This document shows positions 848 to 58,176 of a stretch of DNA of 64,000 nt, piece after piece; position 1 is the stretch's first letter; every line of letters begins with the position of its first letter. The stretch is taken from the NCBI RefSeq assembly GCF_000325665.1, contig NC_019908.1, forward strand, positions 2,108,001 to 2,172,000, written 5' to 3'. The translations under genes were made by a program, and so were the position numbers. The notes beneath the pieces are model-generated. The model did no database searches. It was not told where the DNA came from and worked only from the letters and a program-made list of their open reading frames with translations. The stretch comes from Brachyspira pilosicoli P43/6/78. Its GTDB lineage: Bacteria > Spirochaetota > Brachyspiria > Brachyspirales > Brachyspiraceae.

Positions 848-882
848 TTAGAACAGAGTTATTAAACACTCTGTTCTAATTA
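848..882. terminator. Bidirectional hairpin between convergent genes
   Basis: Perfect 12-bp stem: 848-859 (TTAGAACAGAGT) pairs with 868-879 (ACTCTGTTCTAA), with an 8-nt loop. It lies between the stop codons of the convergent decarboxylase and binding-protein genes. The downstream U-tract is weak on both sides, so the terminator role is inferred. Confidence 0.7.
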
Positions 883-890
883 TTATATAA

Positions 891-1706
891 TTATCCTTTT
901 ATAAATACATCTTTACCAAACCATTTAGTAGATATTTCGGCAGCCTTTCCATCGGCTCTCATATCATCTAAAGCTTTATCAATAGCATTTAACAATTCTG
1001 TATCTGTTTTTCTAAGGCCTACACTAAGATATTGAGATGTAATAGGCTTATCTTCTAATAATGTAAAATCAGCATTCTCTTTAGATATATAATAACGAGC
1101 AACAATCTCATCTACTATCACAGCATCTATTCTTTTAGCTTCCAAATCCAAAAAAGCATTAACATAAGAATCATACTGTCTAATCTCTTTAATTTCTTTA
1201 CTTACAGGGTCATTTACTAATGTTTCATAATTACTGCTTCCGCTTTGCACACCTACTATTTTCCCTTTTAACTCTTCTTTGCTATTAATATCATCTCTAT
1301 CAGAATATTTTGCTATCATAAGCCTATTGTAAAGATATGGTTTAGTGAAATTAACTTGCTGTTTTCTGCTTTCATTAACTGCAAATCCATTCCATATAAC
1401 ATCAACATCTCCTTTCTTTAAGCTTAATATAGCACTAGACCAATCTATAGGCTTAGCCTCAAGCTCTACACCTAAACGATTAGCAACTTCCCTAGCTAAA
1501 TCTATATCAAAGCCAACTATCTCTCCATTATCATCTCTAAAACCCATAGGAGCTAAAGTATCATCTAAACCTAATACTAGTTTTCCATTCTCTTTTACTT
1601 TTTGTAGAGAATTATCTGCTGAAGATACTTCAGTATTTTGTGTTTGAGTTTTTGAGCAAGATATAGCAAAAATAAATATAAAGAATAAAGTTATTATACG
1701 TTTCAT
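891..1706 (-). CDS. Amino-acid ABC transporter substrate-binding lipoprotein (copy 1)
   Basis: Periplasmic polar-amino-acid-type solute-binding protein (PBPb / SBP_bac_3 family), 271 aa. It has a lipoprotein signal peptide with lipobox AISC (Cys17), then the typical core: VLGLDDTLAPMGFRD, GFDIDLAREVANRLGV, KKGDVDVIWNG, FTKPYLYNRLMI, VGVQSGSSNYE and DAVIVDEIVARYYI. The start is supported by an AGGAG about 8 nt upstream. It is the last of three tandem paralogues (see 1926-2741 and 3025-3831). Its first ~58 bases, coding the signal peptide, are identical to copy 2. No permease or ATPase gene is adjacent, so the partner proteins must be elsewhere. The ligand is unknown; the His-run ORF just upstream hints at histidine or metal but proves nothing. 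Confidence 0.9.
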   Translation of the reverse strand: MKRIITLFFIFIFAISCSKTQTQNTEVSSADNSLQKVKENGKLVLGLDDTLAPMGFRDDNGEIVGFDIDLAREVANRLGVELEAKPIDWSSAILSLKKGDVDVIWNGFAVNESRKQQVNFTKPYLYNRLMIAKYSDRDDINSKEELKGKIVGVQSGSSNYETLVNDPVSKEIKEIRQYDSYVNAFLDLEAKRIDAVIVDEIVARYYISKENADFTLLEDKPITSQYLSVGLRKTDTELLNAIDKALDDMRADGKAAEISTKWFGKDVFIKG

Positions 1707-1799
1707 TGTTTTTCTCCTATTTTTTTAATAATTTTTTAATTAATATATATAATACGAACCTAATAAAAAATAATCTTAATTAATACTTATAAAAAATTA

Positions 1800-1865
1800 T
1801 TAATGATGATGATGCCTAGGAGAATAGTTTTTTAATAATTGCATTGTATAAAAGTTATTATTCAT
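1800..1865 (-). CDS. His-run leader peptide 1 (21 aa)
   Basis: Short ORF with its own ribosome site (AGGAG, 8 nt before ATG), ending ..NYSPRHHHH and stop. The four His codons are all CAT and lie directly before the stop. It sits 93 nt upstream of binding-protein copy 1 and about 60 nt after the stop of copy 2. The same architecture occurs before copies 2 and 3, with conserved MN at the start, a central Q(L/F), a Y/F-S-P and K/R-His-run at the end. I infer a cis-acting leader peptide like hisL rather than a working protein. It is too short for ordinary gene callers. Confidence 0.65.
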   Translation of the reverse strand: MNNNFYTMQLLKNYSPRHHHH

Positions 1866-1925
1866 TTTTAAACTCCTATTTTATTTAGTTTTAATGCTGC
1901 TATATTAGCCTATATTGAATTATAA

Positions 1926-2741
1926 TTATCCTCTTACAAAAACATCTTTACCAAACCATTTAGTAGATATTTCGGCAGCTTTTCCATCATCTCTCATATC
2001 ATCTAAAGCTTTATCAATAGCATTTAATAATTCTGTATCTGTCTTTCTAACTCCAACTCCAAATGATTTAGCTGTAATTGGGTATTCTTCTAAAAGTTCA
2101 AAATCAGCATTCTCTTTAGATATATAATAACGAGCCACTATTTCATCTACTATCACAGCATCTATTCTCTTAGCCTCTAAATCTAAAAAAGCATTAGCAT
2201 AAATATCATATTGTCTAATTTCTTTAGTTTCTTTGCTTATAGGGTCAGCTTCTAATGATTCATAATTGCTGCTTCCTGTTTGTACTCCTAATATTTTTCC
2301 TTTTAAATCATCTTTAGTTTTAATATCATCTCTGTCAGCATTTTTCACTATCATAAGTCTGTTATTAAGATATGGTTTAGTAAAATTAACTTGCTCTTTT
2401 CTAGTTTCATTAATAGCAAATCCATTCCATACCACATCAACATCTCCTTTCTTTAAGCTCAATACGACGCTAGACCAATCTACAGGTTTAGCAACCAACT
2501 CCACCCCGAGGCGGTTTGCAACTTCTTTGGCTAAGTCTATATCAAAGCCAACTATATTTCCTTCTTCATCTCTAAAACCCATAGGTGCAAAAGTATCATC
2601 TAAACCTAATACAAGTTTTCCGCTTTCTTTCACTTTTTGTAAAGAATTATCTGCGGCAGAAGATGCTTGTGAGGCATTTTGTGTTTTTGAGCAAGATATA
2701 GCAAAAATAAATATAAAGAATAAAGTTATTATACGTTTCAT
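1926..2741 (-). CDS. Amino-acid ABC transporter substrate-binding lipoprotein (copy 2)
   Basis: Second tandem paralogue, 271 aa, same domain (PBPb / SBP_bac_3). Signal peptide and lipobox AISC are identical in DNA to copy 1. The core motifs GFDIDLAKEVANRLGV, KKGDVDVVWNG, TKPYLNNRLMIV, GVQTGSSNYE and VIVDEIVARYYI are intact. The C-terminal block around ALDDMRDDGKAAEISTKWFG is nearly invariant in all three copies. AGGAG precedes the ATG. It lies between leader 2 upstream and leader 1 downstream and has no obvious promoter of its own, so it is probably read from the promoter upstream of leader 3. Copies differ most in residues of the ligand cleft and lobe 2, compatible with different ligand ranges (inference). 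Confidence 0.9.
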   Translation of the reverse strand: MKRIITLFFIFIFAISCSKTQNASQASSAADNSLQKVKESGKLVLGLDDTFAPMGFRDEEGNIVGFDIDLAKEVANRLGVELVAKPVDWSSVVLSLKKGDVDVVWNGFAINETRKEQVNFTKPYLNNRLMIVKNADRDDIKTKDDLKGKILGVQTGSSNYESLEADPISKETKEIRQYDIYANAFLDLEAKRIDAVIVDEIVARYYISKENADFELLEEYPITAKSFGVGVRKTDTELLNAIDKALDDMRDDGKAAEISTKWFGKDVFVRG

Positions 2742-2861
2742 AGTTTTCTCCTGTTTTTTAAATTTTTAAATTCATAAATTATAATTTTTAAATAAATTTT
2801 TTTTCTTAAGTTAATAAATATAATATTGTTTTAAAATTGATGTTTATAAAACAAAAAGAAA

Positions 2862-2936
2862 TTATTGATGATGATGATGTTTAGGAGAATATTGTCTTAA
2901 GAATTGAACTTTGAAAAAGCATTTGCTGTTATTCAT
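2862..2936 (-). CDS. His-run leader peptide 2 (24 aa)
   Basis: Short ORF starting MNN and ending QYSPKHHHHQ before TAA, with AGGAGAT 7 nt upstream of ATG. It lies 120 nt before binding-protein copy 2, downstream of a strong hairpin (2982-3015) that follows copy 3. It shares the terminal SP-K/R-His-run with leaders 1 and 3, while the middle of the peptide differs. This pattern suggests selection on the His codons and ends rather than on the whole peptide. Confidence 0.65.
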   Translation of the reverse strand: MNNSKCFFKVQFLRQYSPKHHHHQ

Positions 2937-2981
2937 TTTTTTATCTCCTATTTTTTTGAATTATTTGTTTTTTTATTATTT

Positions 2982-3015
2982 AATGGAGGCTTTATATTGT
3001 TTTTTAGCCCCCATT
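2982..3015 (-). terminator. Strong hairpin between binding-protein copy 3 and leader 2
   Basis: AATGGAGGC (2982-2990) pairs with GCCCCCATT (3007-3015) with one mismatch. On the minus strand the stem is followed by an A-rich stretch, not a T-run, so it may act as a 3'-end stabiliser or partial terminator that sets relative expression of copy 3 versus copies 2 and 1. On the plus strand the T-run is present. Confidence 0.5.
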
Positions 3016-3024
3016 AATTTTTTG

Positions 3025-3831
3025 TTATTTTACAACGATGTCTTTACCAAACCATTTAGTAGAAATCTCTGCTGCTTTTCCATCAGCTCTCATATCATCT
3101 AAAGCTTTGTCAACAGCATTTAATAATTCTACATCATTTTTTCTAAAACCTATACCATAAAGCTCTTCAGTTAATGGGCTATTTTCTACAACCTCAAAAT
3201 TAACATTTTCTTCAGCTATATAATAACGTGCTGCTACTTCATCTATTACAACAACATCTATTCTCTTAGCTTGTAAATCTAAGAAAGCATTAACATTAAC
3301 ATCATAAGGTCTAACCTCTTTAGCTTCTTTACTTATAGGGTCAGCTTCTAATGCTTCCTGATTGCTTCCAACCTGTACACCTAAAACTTTTCCTTTCAAA
3401 TCTTCTTTGCTGTTAATATCTTTTCTGTCAGAAGATTTTACTATTATAAGTCTGTTATTAAGATATGGCTTAGAGAAATTAATTTGCTGTTTTCTAGTTT
3501 CATTTATTGTAAAACCATTCCATAGCATATCAACATCACCCTTGTTTAAGCTTAATATACCGCTTGCCCAATCTATAGGCTTAACTTCTAATTTTACTCC
3601 CAAACGATTAGCTACTTCCTGAGCTAAATCTATATCAAAACCAACTACATTTCCAGCCTCATCTCTAAAACCCATAGGTGCAAAAGTATCATCTAATCCT
3701 AATACCAATTTGCCTTTTTCTTTTACTTTTTGTAGAGAGTTATCAGCTCCTGTTTGAGTGTTTTGCGTTTCTGTTTTTGAACAAGATATAGCAAAAATAA
3801 TCATAGAAAATAAAATTAATATACGTTTCAT
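3025..3831 (-). CDS. Amino-acid ABC transporter substrate-binding lipoprotein (copy 3)
   Basis: First gene of the tandem array in transcription order, 268 aa, PBPb / SBP_bac_3 family. Lipobox AISC at Cys17. Conserved motifs are GFDIDLAQEVANRLGV, NKGDVDMLWNG, FSKPYLNNRLIIV, GVQVGSNQE and VVVIDEVAARYYI. It is the most diverged copy: it lacks the SSNYE found in the other two (here SNQE) and ends KDIVVK. AGGAGG precedes the ATG at good spacing. Leader 3 lies 110 nt upstream and is preceded by a near-consensus promoter, so this probably starts the transcription unit for all three. Confidence 0.9.
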   Translation of the reverse strand: MKRILILFSMIIFAISCSKTETQNTQTGADNSLQKVKEKGKLVLGLDDTFAPMGFRDEAGNVVGFDIDLAQEVANRLGVKLEVKPIDWASGILSLNKGDVDMLWNGFTINETRKQQINFSKPYLNNRLIIVKSSDRKDINSKEDLKGKVLGVQVGSNQEALEADPISKEAKEVRPYDVNVNAFLDLQAKRIDVVVIDEVAARYYIAEENVNFEVVENSPLTEELYGIGFRKNDVELLNAVDKALDDMRADGKAAEISTKWFGKDIVVK

Positions 3832-3941
3832 AGTTTTTTCCTCCTAAGTTAAATAATTTTTTTTAAAATTAATCTATATAAACGTAATAAAAAAATAATG
3901 TTTTTAAAATTGTTTTTTATATTTGTTTATCAAAGAAATGA

Positions 3942-4016
3942 TTATTGATGATGATGATGATGTTTAGGAGAAGAGAATTGTGATAATTGAAGTGTAGAAA
4001 AATACATCTTATTCAT
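3942..4016 (-). CDS. His-run leader peptide 3 (24 aa)
   Basis: Short ORF starting MNK and ending FSSPKHHHHHQ before TAA, with five consecutive CAT codons. AGGAGAT lies just upstream of ATG. The probable transcription start (from the promoter at 4049-4076) is only about 26 nt upstream, so this is the first thing a ribosome meets on the mRNA, as in classical amino-acid leader peptides. No GC-rich terminator hairpin is visible in the 110 nt before the binding-protein gene, so any attenuation would use another mechanism. Confidence 0.68.
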   Translation of the reverse strand: MNKMYFSTLQLSQFSSPKHHHHHQ

Positions 4017-4048
4017 TTTTATCTCCTAATTTGATTTTCTTACTATTA

Positions 4049-4076
4049 ATTGTAATACTATTTACAAAAATGTCAA
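4049..4076 (-). promoter_or_regulatory. Promoter of the binding-protein / leader array
   Basis: Minus strand reads TTGACA (4071-4076), a 16-nt spacer and TACAAT (4049-4054), placing the start of transcription near 4042, about 26 nt before the first His-run leader ORF. No comparable promoter is seen before leaders 1 and 2. Confidence 0.7.
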
Positions 4077-56647: not shown

Positions 56648-57760
56648 ATGAAAAAAATACTTATAATATCTTCAGAATATACAGGTCATGGGCATAAAAG
56701 TGTACATACTGCTCTTATTCAAGGTTTTGAAAAATTATATAAAGATAGTGTTGAGATAAAAGTAGTAAATGGCTTTACTTTGGGAGGTCCTGATTTATTA
56801 GCAGCTGAGAGACTTTATAATCAATGTGTAAAATATTTTCCTAAACTTTGGGAGAAGATTTTTAAGTTTTCATTTAAAAACAAAGACTTTATTAATAAAA
56901 ATAATTCTATAACAATTAAGAGAAGTTTTTTAAAGATTTATAAACAGTATAAGCCAGATTTAATTTTGAATGTGCATCCTCTATTTAGCGGAAGTTTATT
57001 AAATATAATAGAGAAGAAGAAATTAGATGTGAAGTTTTTTATACTTATTACAGATTTAATTACAATAACAAAGATTTGGTTTGATAATAGAGCAGATAAA
57101 ATAATAAGCCCTTCAAAAGAAGCTACAGAGTATATGATAAAAAATGGAATAGACAGAGAAAAGCTTATAACATTCGGTCTTCCTGTAAGAAATGGTTTTG
57201 ATGCTCCTTTTGCAAGCAAAGAAGATATTATTAAAAATACAAATATAAATGGAAAGTTAAAAATATTAATACTCAATAATTCTGAAAAGACAAAAAGACT
57301 TTTATATATAATAAAAAATCTTTATAGCAGATATAATTGCGAAGTTACAATAATATGCGGAAGAAATAAGCATACATATAATAAGCTAAATAAATTTTAT
57401 GCTTCAAGAAGTTATAGTCCTCAGATAATAGGCTACACTCAAAATATAGCAAAACTTTTTCATGATAATGATATATTAATAACAAGGTCAGGTCCTACAG
57501 CCATAATAGAGGCAGTTAATTGCATTATTCCAATAGTATCTATGGGGGCTTTACCAGGTCAGGAAGAGGAGAATCCTATTTATATACAGCAAAATGGTTT
57601 AGGTTTAGATTCAAAATCTACAGATGATATATTTAATAAAATAGACTTACTCATTGCTAATAATAGAGAAAACCTTGTAAAAATGCGAGAGGCACAATTT
57701 GATTATTATGGCAGAAATGTTAGAGATGATATTGTTAAATATTTAGCAGATAATATTTAA
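56648..57760 (+). CDS. MGDG-synthase/UgtP-like diacylglycerol glycosyltransferase
   Basis: 370 aa GT28-family enzyme. N-terminal MGDG_synth domain (ILIISSEYTGHGHKSVHTALIQGF, DLILNVHPLFSGSLL, FILITDLITITKIWFD) and C-terminal nucleotide-sugar-binding domain (VTIICGRNKHTYNKL, DILITRSGPTAIIEAV, IVSMGALPGQEEENP). It is expected to add a hexose to diacylglycerol at the membrane; glucose versus galactose is not readable. It stands between two PepSY-like genes and has its own promoter. Confidence 0.88.
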   Translation: MKKILIISSEYTGHGHKSVHTALIQGFEKLYKDSVEIKVVNGFTLGGPDLLAAERLYNQCVKYFPKLWEKIFKFSFKNKDFINKNNSITIKRSFLKIYKQYKPDLILNVHPLFSGSLLNIIEKKKLDVKFFILITDLITITKIWFDNRADKIISPSKEATEYMIKNGIDREKLITFGLPVRNGFDAPFASKEDIIKNTNINGKLKILILNNSEKTKRLLYIIKNLYSRYNCEVTIICGRNKHTYNKLNKFYASRSYSPQIIGYTQNIAKLFHDNDILITRSGPTAIIEAVNCIIPIVSMGALPGQEEENPIYIQQNGLGLDSKSTDDIFNKIDLLIANNRENLVKMREAQFDYYGRNVRDDIVKYLADNI

Positions 57761-58176
57761 TCTCTTTTGCCTTTTGTAATATTACCGTCAAAGTCTACCG
57801 TGATTTTTCTTCTGCTTTTGAATTGTATTTTGTATTCTTTGCTTTTTTTCTGTATATATATTACTTTTTCATCTGGGAATTCTTTTTTTACGATATTTTG
57901 TATTTTTTCTTCTATATAATCTATAGATATTTCATCGCCGCCGCCGCTTATAGTATGCCAATCTCCATTAAAGTTTACATATATTTTTAATCCGCCTTTA
58001 AATATTAAAACATATCCTCCAGATGATTTAGCAGCTCTATATAGATAATAATCTGAGAAATATTTATCAGCAAACATTATAGAGCTTTTAGGTACTTCAC
58101 TTAATCCAATAGACTGTGAGTATAAATAGATATTCATTATTGATAATATAAAAATGATATACAATGTTTTTTTCAT
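57757..58176 (-). CDS. Secreted PepSY-like small protein
   Basis: 139 aa. Signal peptide (MKKTLYIIFILSIMNIYLYS), two PepSY-like repeats (VPKSSIMFADKYF..YVLIFKGGLKIYVNFNGDWHTISGGG..DYIEEKIQNIVKKEF..YKIQFKSRRKITVDFDGNI). Convergent with and overlapping the glycosyltransferase gene by 4 nt. Confidence 0.75.
   Translation of the reverse strand: MKKTLYIIFILSIMNIYLYSQSIGLSEVPKSSIMFADKYFSDYYLYRAAKSSGGYVLIFKGGLKIYVNFNGDWHTISGGGDEISIDYIEEKIQNIVKKEFPDEKVIYIQKKSKEYKIQFKSRRKITVDFDGNITKGKRD

What the first reader, a model, noticed from the sequence alone, without database searches (positions are those of the whole stretch)
1800..4016. Three His-run leader peptides, one before each tandem amino-acid-binding lipoprotein
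Seen directly: short ORFs at 1800-1865, 2862-2936 and 3942-4016 (-), each with an AGGAG site, each starting MN and ending in (Y/F)SxP-type SP(K/R) followed by 4, 4 and 5 CAT codons right before the stop (one with no trailing residue, two with one Gln). Each lies 93-120 nt upstream of a paralogous solute-binding lipoprotein gene. The middles of the peptides differ while the ends are kept, which argues for selection on the His codons. Known: hisL-type leaders use His runs to sense charged tRNA-His. Inference: a histidine- (or metal-) sensing leader device, duplicated together with its target gene, giving per-gene control within one transcript. Unlike hisL there is no GC-rich terminator after the run, so the mechanism would be different (translation coupling, Rho, or RNA decay).
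Basis: partly seen in the sequence, partly recalled or inferred. Interest (0 to 1): 0.85.

Follow-up and report, generated by a model that had tools for sequence, protein, structure and literature searches.

The report
Histidine-codon switches on tandem transporter genes
In a gut spirochete that appears to have lost histidine synthesis, each of three copied amino-acid-binding protein genes carries its own tiny leader gene whose histidine codons probably act as a starvation switch: a ribosome that stalls on them should uncover the start site of the next gene.

Summary
Three short ORFs (1800-1865, 2862-2936, 3942-4016, minus strand) end in SP(K/R) plus 4-5 His; the pattern CATx4-N0-3-TAA occurs nowhere else in the genome. 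In 9 of 9 intact leaders from four genomes the computed fold buries that SD; a ribosome on His codons 1-3 covers the anti-SD and partly frees it. Of 23 SD-bearing ORFs in the window these three have the most buried SDs. Best explanation: terminator-free translational attenuation, one switch per gene, raising uptake when His-tRNA is uncharged. HisD is absent; the B. pilosicoli genome paper reports incomplete histidine genes and three such binding proteins; the nearest solved structure holds histidine. Seventeen HisD-bearing Brachyspira have a His-bearing leader without this anti-SD; an Ile/Leu leader with similar layout precedes ilvB in 24 of 24 readable genomes. The principle is known (rtpA, LEU element); this form, repeated before each gene, appears new. 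All evidence is computational.

The parts
3942..4016 (-). Leader ORF 3, MNKMYFSTLQLSQFSSPKHHHHHQ
   Evidence: orthologues in G011, G013, G016
4022..4027 (-). SD (AGGAGA) of leader 3
3964..3972 (-). Anti-SD TTCTCCTAA of leader 3 (Ser-Pro-Lys codons), pairs with the SD of the 3025-3831 gene (9 pairs incl. one G-U)
3948..3962 (-). Five His codons (CAT)
3839..3847 (-). SD region (TTAGGAGGA) of binding-protein gene 3
3025..3831 (-). Binding-protein lipoprotein 3 (SBP_bac_3, 268 aa)
2862..2936 (-). Leader ORF 2, MNNSKCFFKVQFLRQYSPKHHHHQ
2944..2949 (-). SD (AGGAGA) of leader 2, alternative partner of the anti-SD
2883..2889 (-). Anti-SD TTCTCCT of leader 2
2868..2879 (-). Four His codons (CAT)
2746..2752 (-). 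SD region (AGGAGAA) of binding-protein gene 2
1926..2741 (-). Binding-protein lipoprotein 2 (SBP_bac_3, 271 aa)
1800..1865 (-). Leader ORF 1, MNNNFYTMQLLKNYSPRHHHH
1872..1877 (-). SD (AGGAGT) of leader 1
1817..1824 (-). Anti-SD TTCTCCTA of leader 1
1803..1814 (-). Four His codons (CAT)
1712..1719 (-). SD region (TAGGAGAA) of binding-protein gene 1
891..1706 (-). Binding-protein lipoprotein 1 (SBP_bac_3, 271 aa)
4049..4076 (-). Promoter-like TTGACA-16-TACAAT before the first leader (consensus match only); a similar block stands before the leader in the 17 HisD-bearing genomes, read by eye
848..879 (-). Terminator-like hairpin at the end of the three-gene array (also fits the + strand)

Best explanation
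Each leader-gene pair is a histidine-starvation switch acting on translation. The leader's Ser-Pro codons (TTCTCCT plus A in leaders 1 and 3) are an anti-SD that pairs across the 93-120 nt spacer with the SD of the following binding-protein gene and keeps it closed. Ribosomes translate the leader. With enough charged His-tRNA they run through the His codons and leave; with five His codons, or four plus Gln, the anti-SD has already emerged behind a ribosome at the stop codon, so the helix can re-form and the gene is off. When charged His-tRNA is scarce the ribosome waits on the first His codons, which lie directly 3' of the anti-SD; its footprint covers the anti-SD, the gene's SD opens and the binding protein is made. 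Because the switch acts on translation, one transcript needs one switch per gene, which accounts for the repetition. Shown: the ORFs, the complementarity, computed folds, conservation in the clade, absence of HisD. Inferred: leader translation, stalling, response to histidine, a single transcript, histidine as ligand.
For: State model: in 9 of 9 intact leaders (G000 x3, G011 x2, G013 x2, G016 x2) the gene's SD is unpaired with probability 0.08 or less in the free RNA; with a ribosome at His codons 1-3 it is 0.26-0.68 (footprint -14..+15; 0.21-0.66 with -12..+13). Window control: of 23 mechanically listed SD-bearing ORFs the three are the most buried (0.01 each; median 0.41). Null: with leader body and spacer dinucleotide-shuffled and the leader start masked, pairing of the gene SD with the leader ORF reached the observed value in 2, 3 and 0 of 300 shuffles for leaders 3, 2 and 1. 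Natural contrasts: G016 copy 1, lacking anti-SD and two His codons, SD unpaired 0.76 (0.73); copies 1 of G011 and G013, without a leader, 0.90 and 0.70. Screen: AGGAG-N4-10-ATG-N25-55-TCTCCT occurs at 6 places in the genome: these 3, an Ile/Leu-rich leader before ilvB, and 2 overlapping longer ORFs. Context: HisD (PF00815) absent here and in G011, G012, G013, G016, present in 19 of 26 Brachyspira; PMC2897892 reports an incomplete histidine gene set, plus three PAAT binding-protein genes, in B. pilosicoli and not in the two other species it compared; nearest solved structure is a histidine-bound binding protein, 4ohn, Z 34.5, rmsd 1.2, 240 aligned. No terminator-like site near the leaders, no Rfam match there.
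Against: No experiment. Whole-region folding energies are not exceptional (z -0.90, 0.08, -0.71). A buried SD alone is not rare: shuffles fell to 0.05 or less in 36, 17 and 25 of 300, and at or below the observed value in 2, 11 and 2 (leaders 3, 2, 1). Leader 2's free RNA divides the anti-SD between its own SD (0.53) and the gene's SD (0.45), favouring the gene only with a ribosome on the leader start (0.96); its upstream region also holds a longer G-U-bearing complement to the gene SD. For the 4 leaders with four His and no Gln, re-pairing at the stop depends on the assumed footprint (0.02-0.08 with -14, 0.80-0.98 with -12). Stalling frees the SD only partly. The helix shows little covariation. 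TCT-CCT in all three paralogues has chance 0.02 from codon usage, and they share ancestry. pN/pS is 1.06 for leader 2 and 0.31 for leader 3. Two of four clade genomes have no leader before copy 1. HisD is also absent in G019, whose related gene has no such leader found, and in G023 (85% complete), where no close orthologue was found. Arginine- and ornithine-type structures score close behind 4ohn (6det Z 33.0, TTC0807 32.8).
Confidence: 0.75

Rival explanations
1. The leaders act by a nascent-peptide effect: SP(K/R)HHHH arrests or slows the ribosome itself, perhaps with free histidine or a metal as effector, and that arrest opens the SD.
For: The peptide end is kept while the middle differs. 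That arrest peptides often carry Pro and basic residues near their ends is recalled, not from a call.
Against: The kept SP codons are explained by the anti-SD; what stands between Pro and the His run varies (K, R, Y, KF) and the number of His varies 4-6, unusual for a specific arrest motif. The anti-SD half of the mechanism would be shared with the best explanation.
Confidence: 0.08
2. The anti-SD mainly pairs with the leader's own SD, so the device regulates leader translation (or RNA decay), and the binding-protein genes are affected only indirectly.
For: Leader 2's minimum-energy fold pairs the anti-SD with its own SD (0.53). In the HisD-bearing Brachyspira the leader SD is mostly paired, with its main partner in the leader ORF (unpaired 0.00-0.19 in 14 of the 16 leaders where it was scored).
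Against: In 8 of 9 intact leaders the gene's SD is the preferred partner in the free RNA (0.72-1.00), and in all 9 when a ribosome occupies the leader start (0.96 or more).
Confidence: 0.08
3. The run is a slippage-prone CAT microsatellite in a non-functional ORF inherited with the duplicated gene.
For: His number varies 4-6 between genomes; substitution counts are uninformative.
Against: A CAC codon inside the run in two genomes, insertions and deletions in the ORF in multiples of three (by eye), SD and ATG kept and anti-SD exact in all 9 intact copies, three of three SDs most buried of 23. HisD-bearing relatives have differently composed but His-enriched leaders in the same place.
Confidence: 0.05
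4. Classical transcription attenuation as in hisL, with an unrecognised terminator or Rho.
For: Leader with a His run close to the stop, the hallmark of hisL (PMC9413887 passages).
Against: No terminator-like site on the minus strand near the leaders (consensus scan); no Rfam match at the locus, RF00514 included; one such attenuator would suffice for a co-transcribed array. Rho cannot be excluded.
Confidence: 0.04

Closest known systems
LEU element before leuA in Actinobacteria (PMC1262725; passages read)
   Same: Leader ORF with a run of one amino acid's codons; [quoted passage not shown]
   Different: There the Leu codon run itself pairs with the SD, with a proposed pseudoknot, before a biosynthetic gene, and the authors leave the mechanism open. 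Here codons just 5' of a His run pair, the target is an uptake gene, and the unit is repeated before each gene of a tandem array.
rtpA (anti-TRAP) leader of B. subtilis (PMC11255114 passages; Chen and Yanofsky 2003 and 2004 known from its text and reference list and from recall)
   Same: tRNA-dependent ribosome stalling in a leader controls translation of the next gene.
   Different: Tryptophan, with a T-box upstream as well, and a regulator gene; its RNA layout was not compared here.
Polycysteine leaderless short ORFs of mycobacteria (passage in the review PMC9031893; original paper not held)
   Same: Contiguous codons of one amino acid in a short ORF sense its supply and control translation downstream.
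   Different: Leaderless, cysteine, actinobacteria.
hisL-type attenuators and His-leader attenuators of Firmicutes (PMC9413887 passages)
   Same: Three to five His codons in a row in a short leader; the paper also mentions attenuators in which a structure hides the RBS instead of a terminator.
   Different: Those it reports precede his biosynthetic operons and use terminator/antiterminator hairpins; the stem 'spirochaet' has 0 occurrences in its text.
erm translational attenuators (recalled; titles and abstract starts listed)
   Same: A stalled leader ribosome breaks a helix that hides the next gene's SD.
   Different: Drug-induced stalling rather than uncharged tRNA.

Membership tests
Translational attenuator with leader peptide (amino-acid sensing) | Short ORF with its own SD upstream of the regulated gene | tested here: met
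Translational attenuator with leader peptide (amino-acid sensing) | Run of codons for the sensed amino acid at the stall position | tested here: met
   4-6 His codons in all 9 intact copies
Translational attenuator with leader peptide (amino-acid sensing) | RNA structure that hides the SD of the regulated gene | tested here: met
   computed only; leader 2's free RNA is ambiguous as to the anti-SD's partner
Translational attenuator with leader peptide (amino-acid sensing) | A ribosome stalled on the run disrupts that structure | tested here: met
   in silico footprint model only; the SD opens partly
Translational attenuator with leader peptide (amino-acid sensing) | Expression rises when the amino acid is scarce | not testable with these tools
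   needs experiment
hisL-type transcription attenuator (RF00514) | Terminator/antiterminator after the leader | tested here: not met
   no terminator-like site near the leaders on the minus strand (consensus scan)
hisL-type transcription attenuator (RF00514) | Match to the Rfam model | tested here: not met
   7 loci scanned, L028 spans all three leaders; the only row was SNORA48 in L033, below its cut-off
T-box riboswitch | T-box RNA fold | tested here: not met
   no Rfam match in the 7 loci, nor in 18 more distant loci at gathering threshold
Nascent-chain arrest peptide | Stalling depends on peptide sequence, not tRNA charging | not testable with these tools
   needs toeprinting
Histidine ABC-transporter binding protein | Binding-protein family 3 | tested here: met
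Histidine ABC-transporter binding protein | Binds histidine | tested here: inconclusive
   nearest structure 4ohn holds histidine, but arginine- and ornithine-bound structures score almost as high; NCBIfam matches of the three proteins, HisJ included, are all below cut-off

The most novel reading that the evidence does not exclude
Brachyspira uses a terminator-free, anti-SD-in-leader system as a general sensor of tRNA charging: an Ile/Leu version before ilvB across the genus, and a His version that was built in the pilosicoli clade from an older His-bearing leader when histidine synthesis was lost and the binding-protein gene tripled, so that a whole self-contained switch was copied with each gene.
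Probability: 0.38. Interest if true: 0.72.

Novelty: new variant of a known kind. Interest (0 to 1): 0.63.

Why it matters
It would be a compact, terminator-free histidine sensor in a spirochete. In the listings I saw no leader-peptide attenuator described in Brachyspira; the 6 papers that hold both 'Brachyspira' and 'leader peptide' concern other topics by their titles. It offers a case where loss of a biosynthetic pathway, tripling of an uptake gene and remodelling of its leader can be followed across sister species, with natural copies that lack parts of the device. It suggests why a translational switch must be repeated for each gene while a transcriptional one need not. The mechanism is directly testable with a small reporter set.

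Tried and rejected
Terminator-based attenuation: none found by consensus scan. Riboswitch or T-box: no Rfam match at the locus, none in 18 distant loci. His leader before hisG in HisD-bearing genomes: no SD-bearing short ORF in the up to 330 nt upstream in the 19 loci looked at. Spread outside the clade: the exact 18-mer in 392 phylum genomes only in G000, G011, G013; with 2 mismatches in the genus (15 of 26 genomes) the extra hits, compared by coordinates, do not lie before a close binding-protein match except G016's leader 2; what they lie in was not examined. CAT-run hits in the genus were looked at only where a locus was returned (30 loci, 28 distinct places); apart from the pilosicoli-clade leaders I saw no SD-plus-short-ORF leader there. 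The relaxed own-genome screen GGAG..ATG..CTCCT gave 51 rows; loci of the first 30 were examined, five distinct short ORFs came up and only the ilvB one looked like a leader; the rows without loci were read only as printed. Substitution counts in leaders: too few, and leader 3 orthologues were compared without realigning an inserted codon. The buried SD of 57757-58176 was set aside because its sequence partner lies upstream of a likely promoter, judged by eye. One search read minus-strand loci in the wrong orientation and is superseded.

The 17 leaders of HisD-bearing genomes used were picked by me from the candidates by position and promoter, after the peptides had been seen; other small ORFs listed there (for example in L035 and L038) were dropped. 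Of the 26 genus genomes: 4 have run-type leaders, 17 the other leader, G001 and G003 (HisD present) and G019 have a related gene with no such leader found (one search lists other small ORFs in L051), G023 has no close orthologue, and in G012 only a 19-residue piece of the gene was found. In one search the G013 ilvB case failed on a text match and was left out (4 of 5 modelled).
Full report
What is there. The window lies in a Brachyspira genome of 2,555,556 bases. I take it to be B. pilosicoli or a very close relative: G011, whose contig has the same length as a record named B. pilosicoli that also matched, has a 91% identical protein, and the published B. pilosicoli genome has three PAAT binding-protein genes with consecutive locus tags; that these are the same three genes is inferred. 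On the minus strand three family-3 binding lipoproteins (891-1706, 1926-2741, 3025-3831; PF00497) are each preceded by an ORF of 21 or 24 codons ending in SP(K/R) and 4-5 CAT codons. CATx4-N0-3-TAA occurs nowhere else in the genome.

The missed element. Read as RNA, the Ser-Pro codons are TTCTCCT (plus A), an anti-SD. Minimum-energy folds pair it with the SD of the binding-protein gene for leaders 1 and 3 and with the leader's own SD for leader 2. In the partition function the gene SD is unpaired at 0.00, 0.03 and 0.01 for leaders 1, 2 and 3. In leader 2 the anti-SD divides 0.45/0.53 between gene SD and own SD; if a ribosome occupies the leader start the gene SD wins with 0.96. Among 23 mechanically listed SD-bearing ORFs of the window these three have the most buried SDs (0.01; median 0.41); the fourth (0.08) was set aside because its partner lies upstream of a likely promoter; gene 2 has a second, G-U-bearing complement upstream. 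With leader body and spacer shuffled, pairing of the gene SD with the leader ORF equalled the observed value in 2, 3 and 0 of 300 shuffles for leaders 3, 2 and 1, although an SD unpaired at 0.05 or less, by any partner, appeared in 36, 17 and 25. The whole-region folding energies are not unusual (z -0.90, 0.08, -0.71), so the signal lies in one helix.

How a ribosome would work it. Masking 14 nt upstream to 15 nt downstream of the first P-site base, a ribosome with His 1, 2 or 3 in the A site removes the anti-SD helix in all 9 intact leaders and raises gene-SD openness to 0.26-0.68. At the stop codon the helix is back (0.89-1.00) in the five leaders with four or five His plus Gln, or six His, and not (0.02-0.08) in the four with four His only; with a footprint two nucleotides shorter it is back in all nine (0.80-1.00), and one leader re-pairs in part (0.22) already at His 3. 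So the run may both place the stall over the anti-SD and set the distance to the stop. The opening is partial, as other weak pairs form.

Comparison inside the clade. G011, G013 and G016 carry the same gene array. Leaders 3 and 2 are intact in all three (SPKFHHHHQ with a CAC codon in G011 and G016; six His in G013; SPYHHHH in G016). Before copy 1, G011 and G013 have no leader, and G016 has MNNNFYMVELLKEYHH, lacking the anti-SD and two His codons. In those three copies the gene SD is open: 0.90, 0.70 and 0.73-0.76. The anti-SD core TCTCCT is exact in all 9 intact leaders. Spacers run from 93 to 133 nt. Substitution counts are too small to show coding constraint, and the helix has almost no covariation.

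Comparison across the genus. Of 26 genomes, 19 have histidinol dehydrogenase; it is missing in G000, G011, G012, G013 and G016, and also in G019 and G023 (the control search rings in 13 of 14 reference genomes). Seventeen HisD-bearing genomes have before the orthologous gene a similar promoter-like block (by eye) and a 16-27 codon leader; 17 of 17 have a His in the last 8 residues and 12 of 17 have two or more, against 0.093 and 0.004 expected per leader from codon usage. These leaders were chosen by me, are related to one another, and the enrichment was noticed before it was counted. None of the 17 has TCTCC or CTCCT in the upstream region scanned, though two have TCCTT, and their gene SD is not specially buried (0.21-0.92, median 0.58). 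In G010 and G021 the order is permease, ATPase, leader, binding protein (by sequence likeness read by eye). In the window's genome a similar permease-ATPase pair stands at C1:1620k, over the family cut-off for the permease, with no binding protein seen in the 3.3-kb locus; I infer that it may serve the three proteins.

Substrate. A model of protein 2 (mean pLDDT 88.6) matches best 4ohn, a pneumococcal binding protein with bound histidine (Foldseek E 9.1e-30; Z 34.5, rmsd 1.2, 240 aligned). Arginine- and ornithine-bound proteins follow closely (6det Z 33.0; TTC0807 32.8 with an analogue and 32.4 with ornithine), so the ligand is not settled. PMC2897892 (passages only) says B. pilosicoli lacks a complete histidine gene set while B. 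hyodysenteriae and B. murdochii have it, and names three PAAT binding-protein genes found in B. pilosicoli and not in those two; the authors connect these with histidine supply. The passages seen do not mention leaders.

A second device. A search for AGGAG-N4-10-ATG-N25-55-TCTCCT found six places: the three leaders, MKSFFKHFNQTNISIILLSLIIIL 122 nt before ilvB, and two overlapping longer ORFs. An Ile/Leu-tailed leader precedes ilvB in 24 of 24 genomes with a readable start, with CTCCT or TCTCC in it in 21. In the pilosicoli clade, 4 of 5 cases modelled, the anti-SD pairs with the ilvB SD at 0.72-0.92 when a ribosome is on the leader start, but at only 0.01-0.07 in three of the four free RNAs (0.73 in the fourth); outside the clade predicted pairing of the SD with the leader ranges from 0.00 to 0.81. 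This supports a shared design but is weaker than the His case.

Verdict. It works like the rtpA leader and the actinobacterial LEU element; as a poly-His, uptake-gene, tandemly repeated version in a spirochete I rate it a new variant of a known kind.

Noticed in passing
G000:C1:450287-450500 (outside the window), L129, L135: Ile/Leu-rich leader with anti-SD before ilvB; an Ile/Leu-tailed leader stands there in 24 of 24 Brachyspira genomes with a readable ilvB start; a possible branched-chain translational attenuator.
   Followed up: partly
L056 about 3430-3625 (G016): Leader before copy 1 lacks the anti-SD and two His codons; the gene SD is predicted open: a natural copy without the switch.
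   Followed up: yes
L195 reverse complement 1426-2863 (G000:C1 near 1620k): Permease-ATPase pair of the amino-acid ABC type with no binding protein seen in the 3.3-kb locus; in G010 and G021 similar genes sit directly before the leader and binding protein.
   Followed up: partly
window 2981-3018: Hairpin (-15.9 kcal/mol) between the stop of gene 3 and leader 2, also seen in G011 and G013 and in part in G016, followed by A-rich rather than U-rich sequence on the gene strand; perhaps an mRNA stabiliser or processing site.
   Followed up: no
L032, L035-L041, L043-L045, L047-L049: In the HisD-bearing Brachyspira the leader's own SD is mostly paired with its leader ORF (unpaired 0.19 or less in 14 of 16 scored): a different, unresolved mechanism for the older His-bearing leaders.
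   Followed up: partly
L065, L067, L072: In these distant relatives the translated match runs over the end of one binding-protein-like domain into another, suggesting adjoining or fused tandem domains.
   Followed up: no
L004 (G000:C1:1324113), L011, L013, L019, L025: The same 18-mer TCTCCATAGCATCATCAT (2 mismatches to the leader pattern) occurs once in each of the five pilosicoli-clade genomes; its setting was not examined.
   Followed up: no
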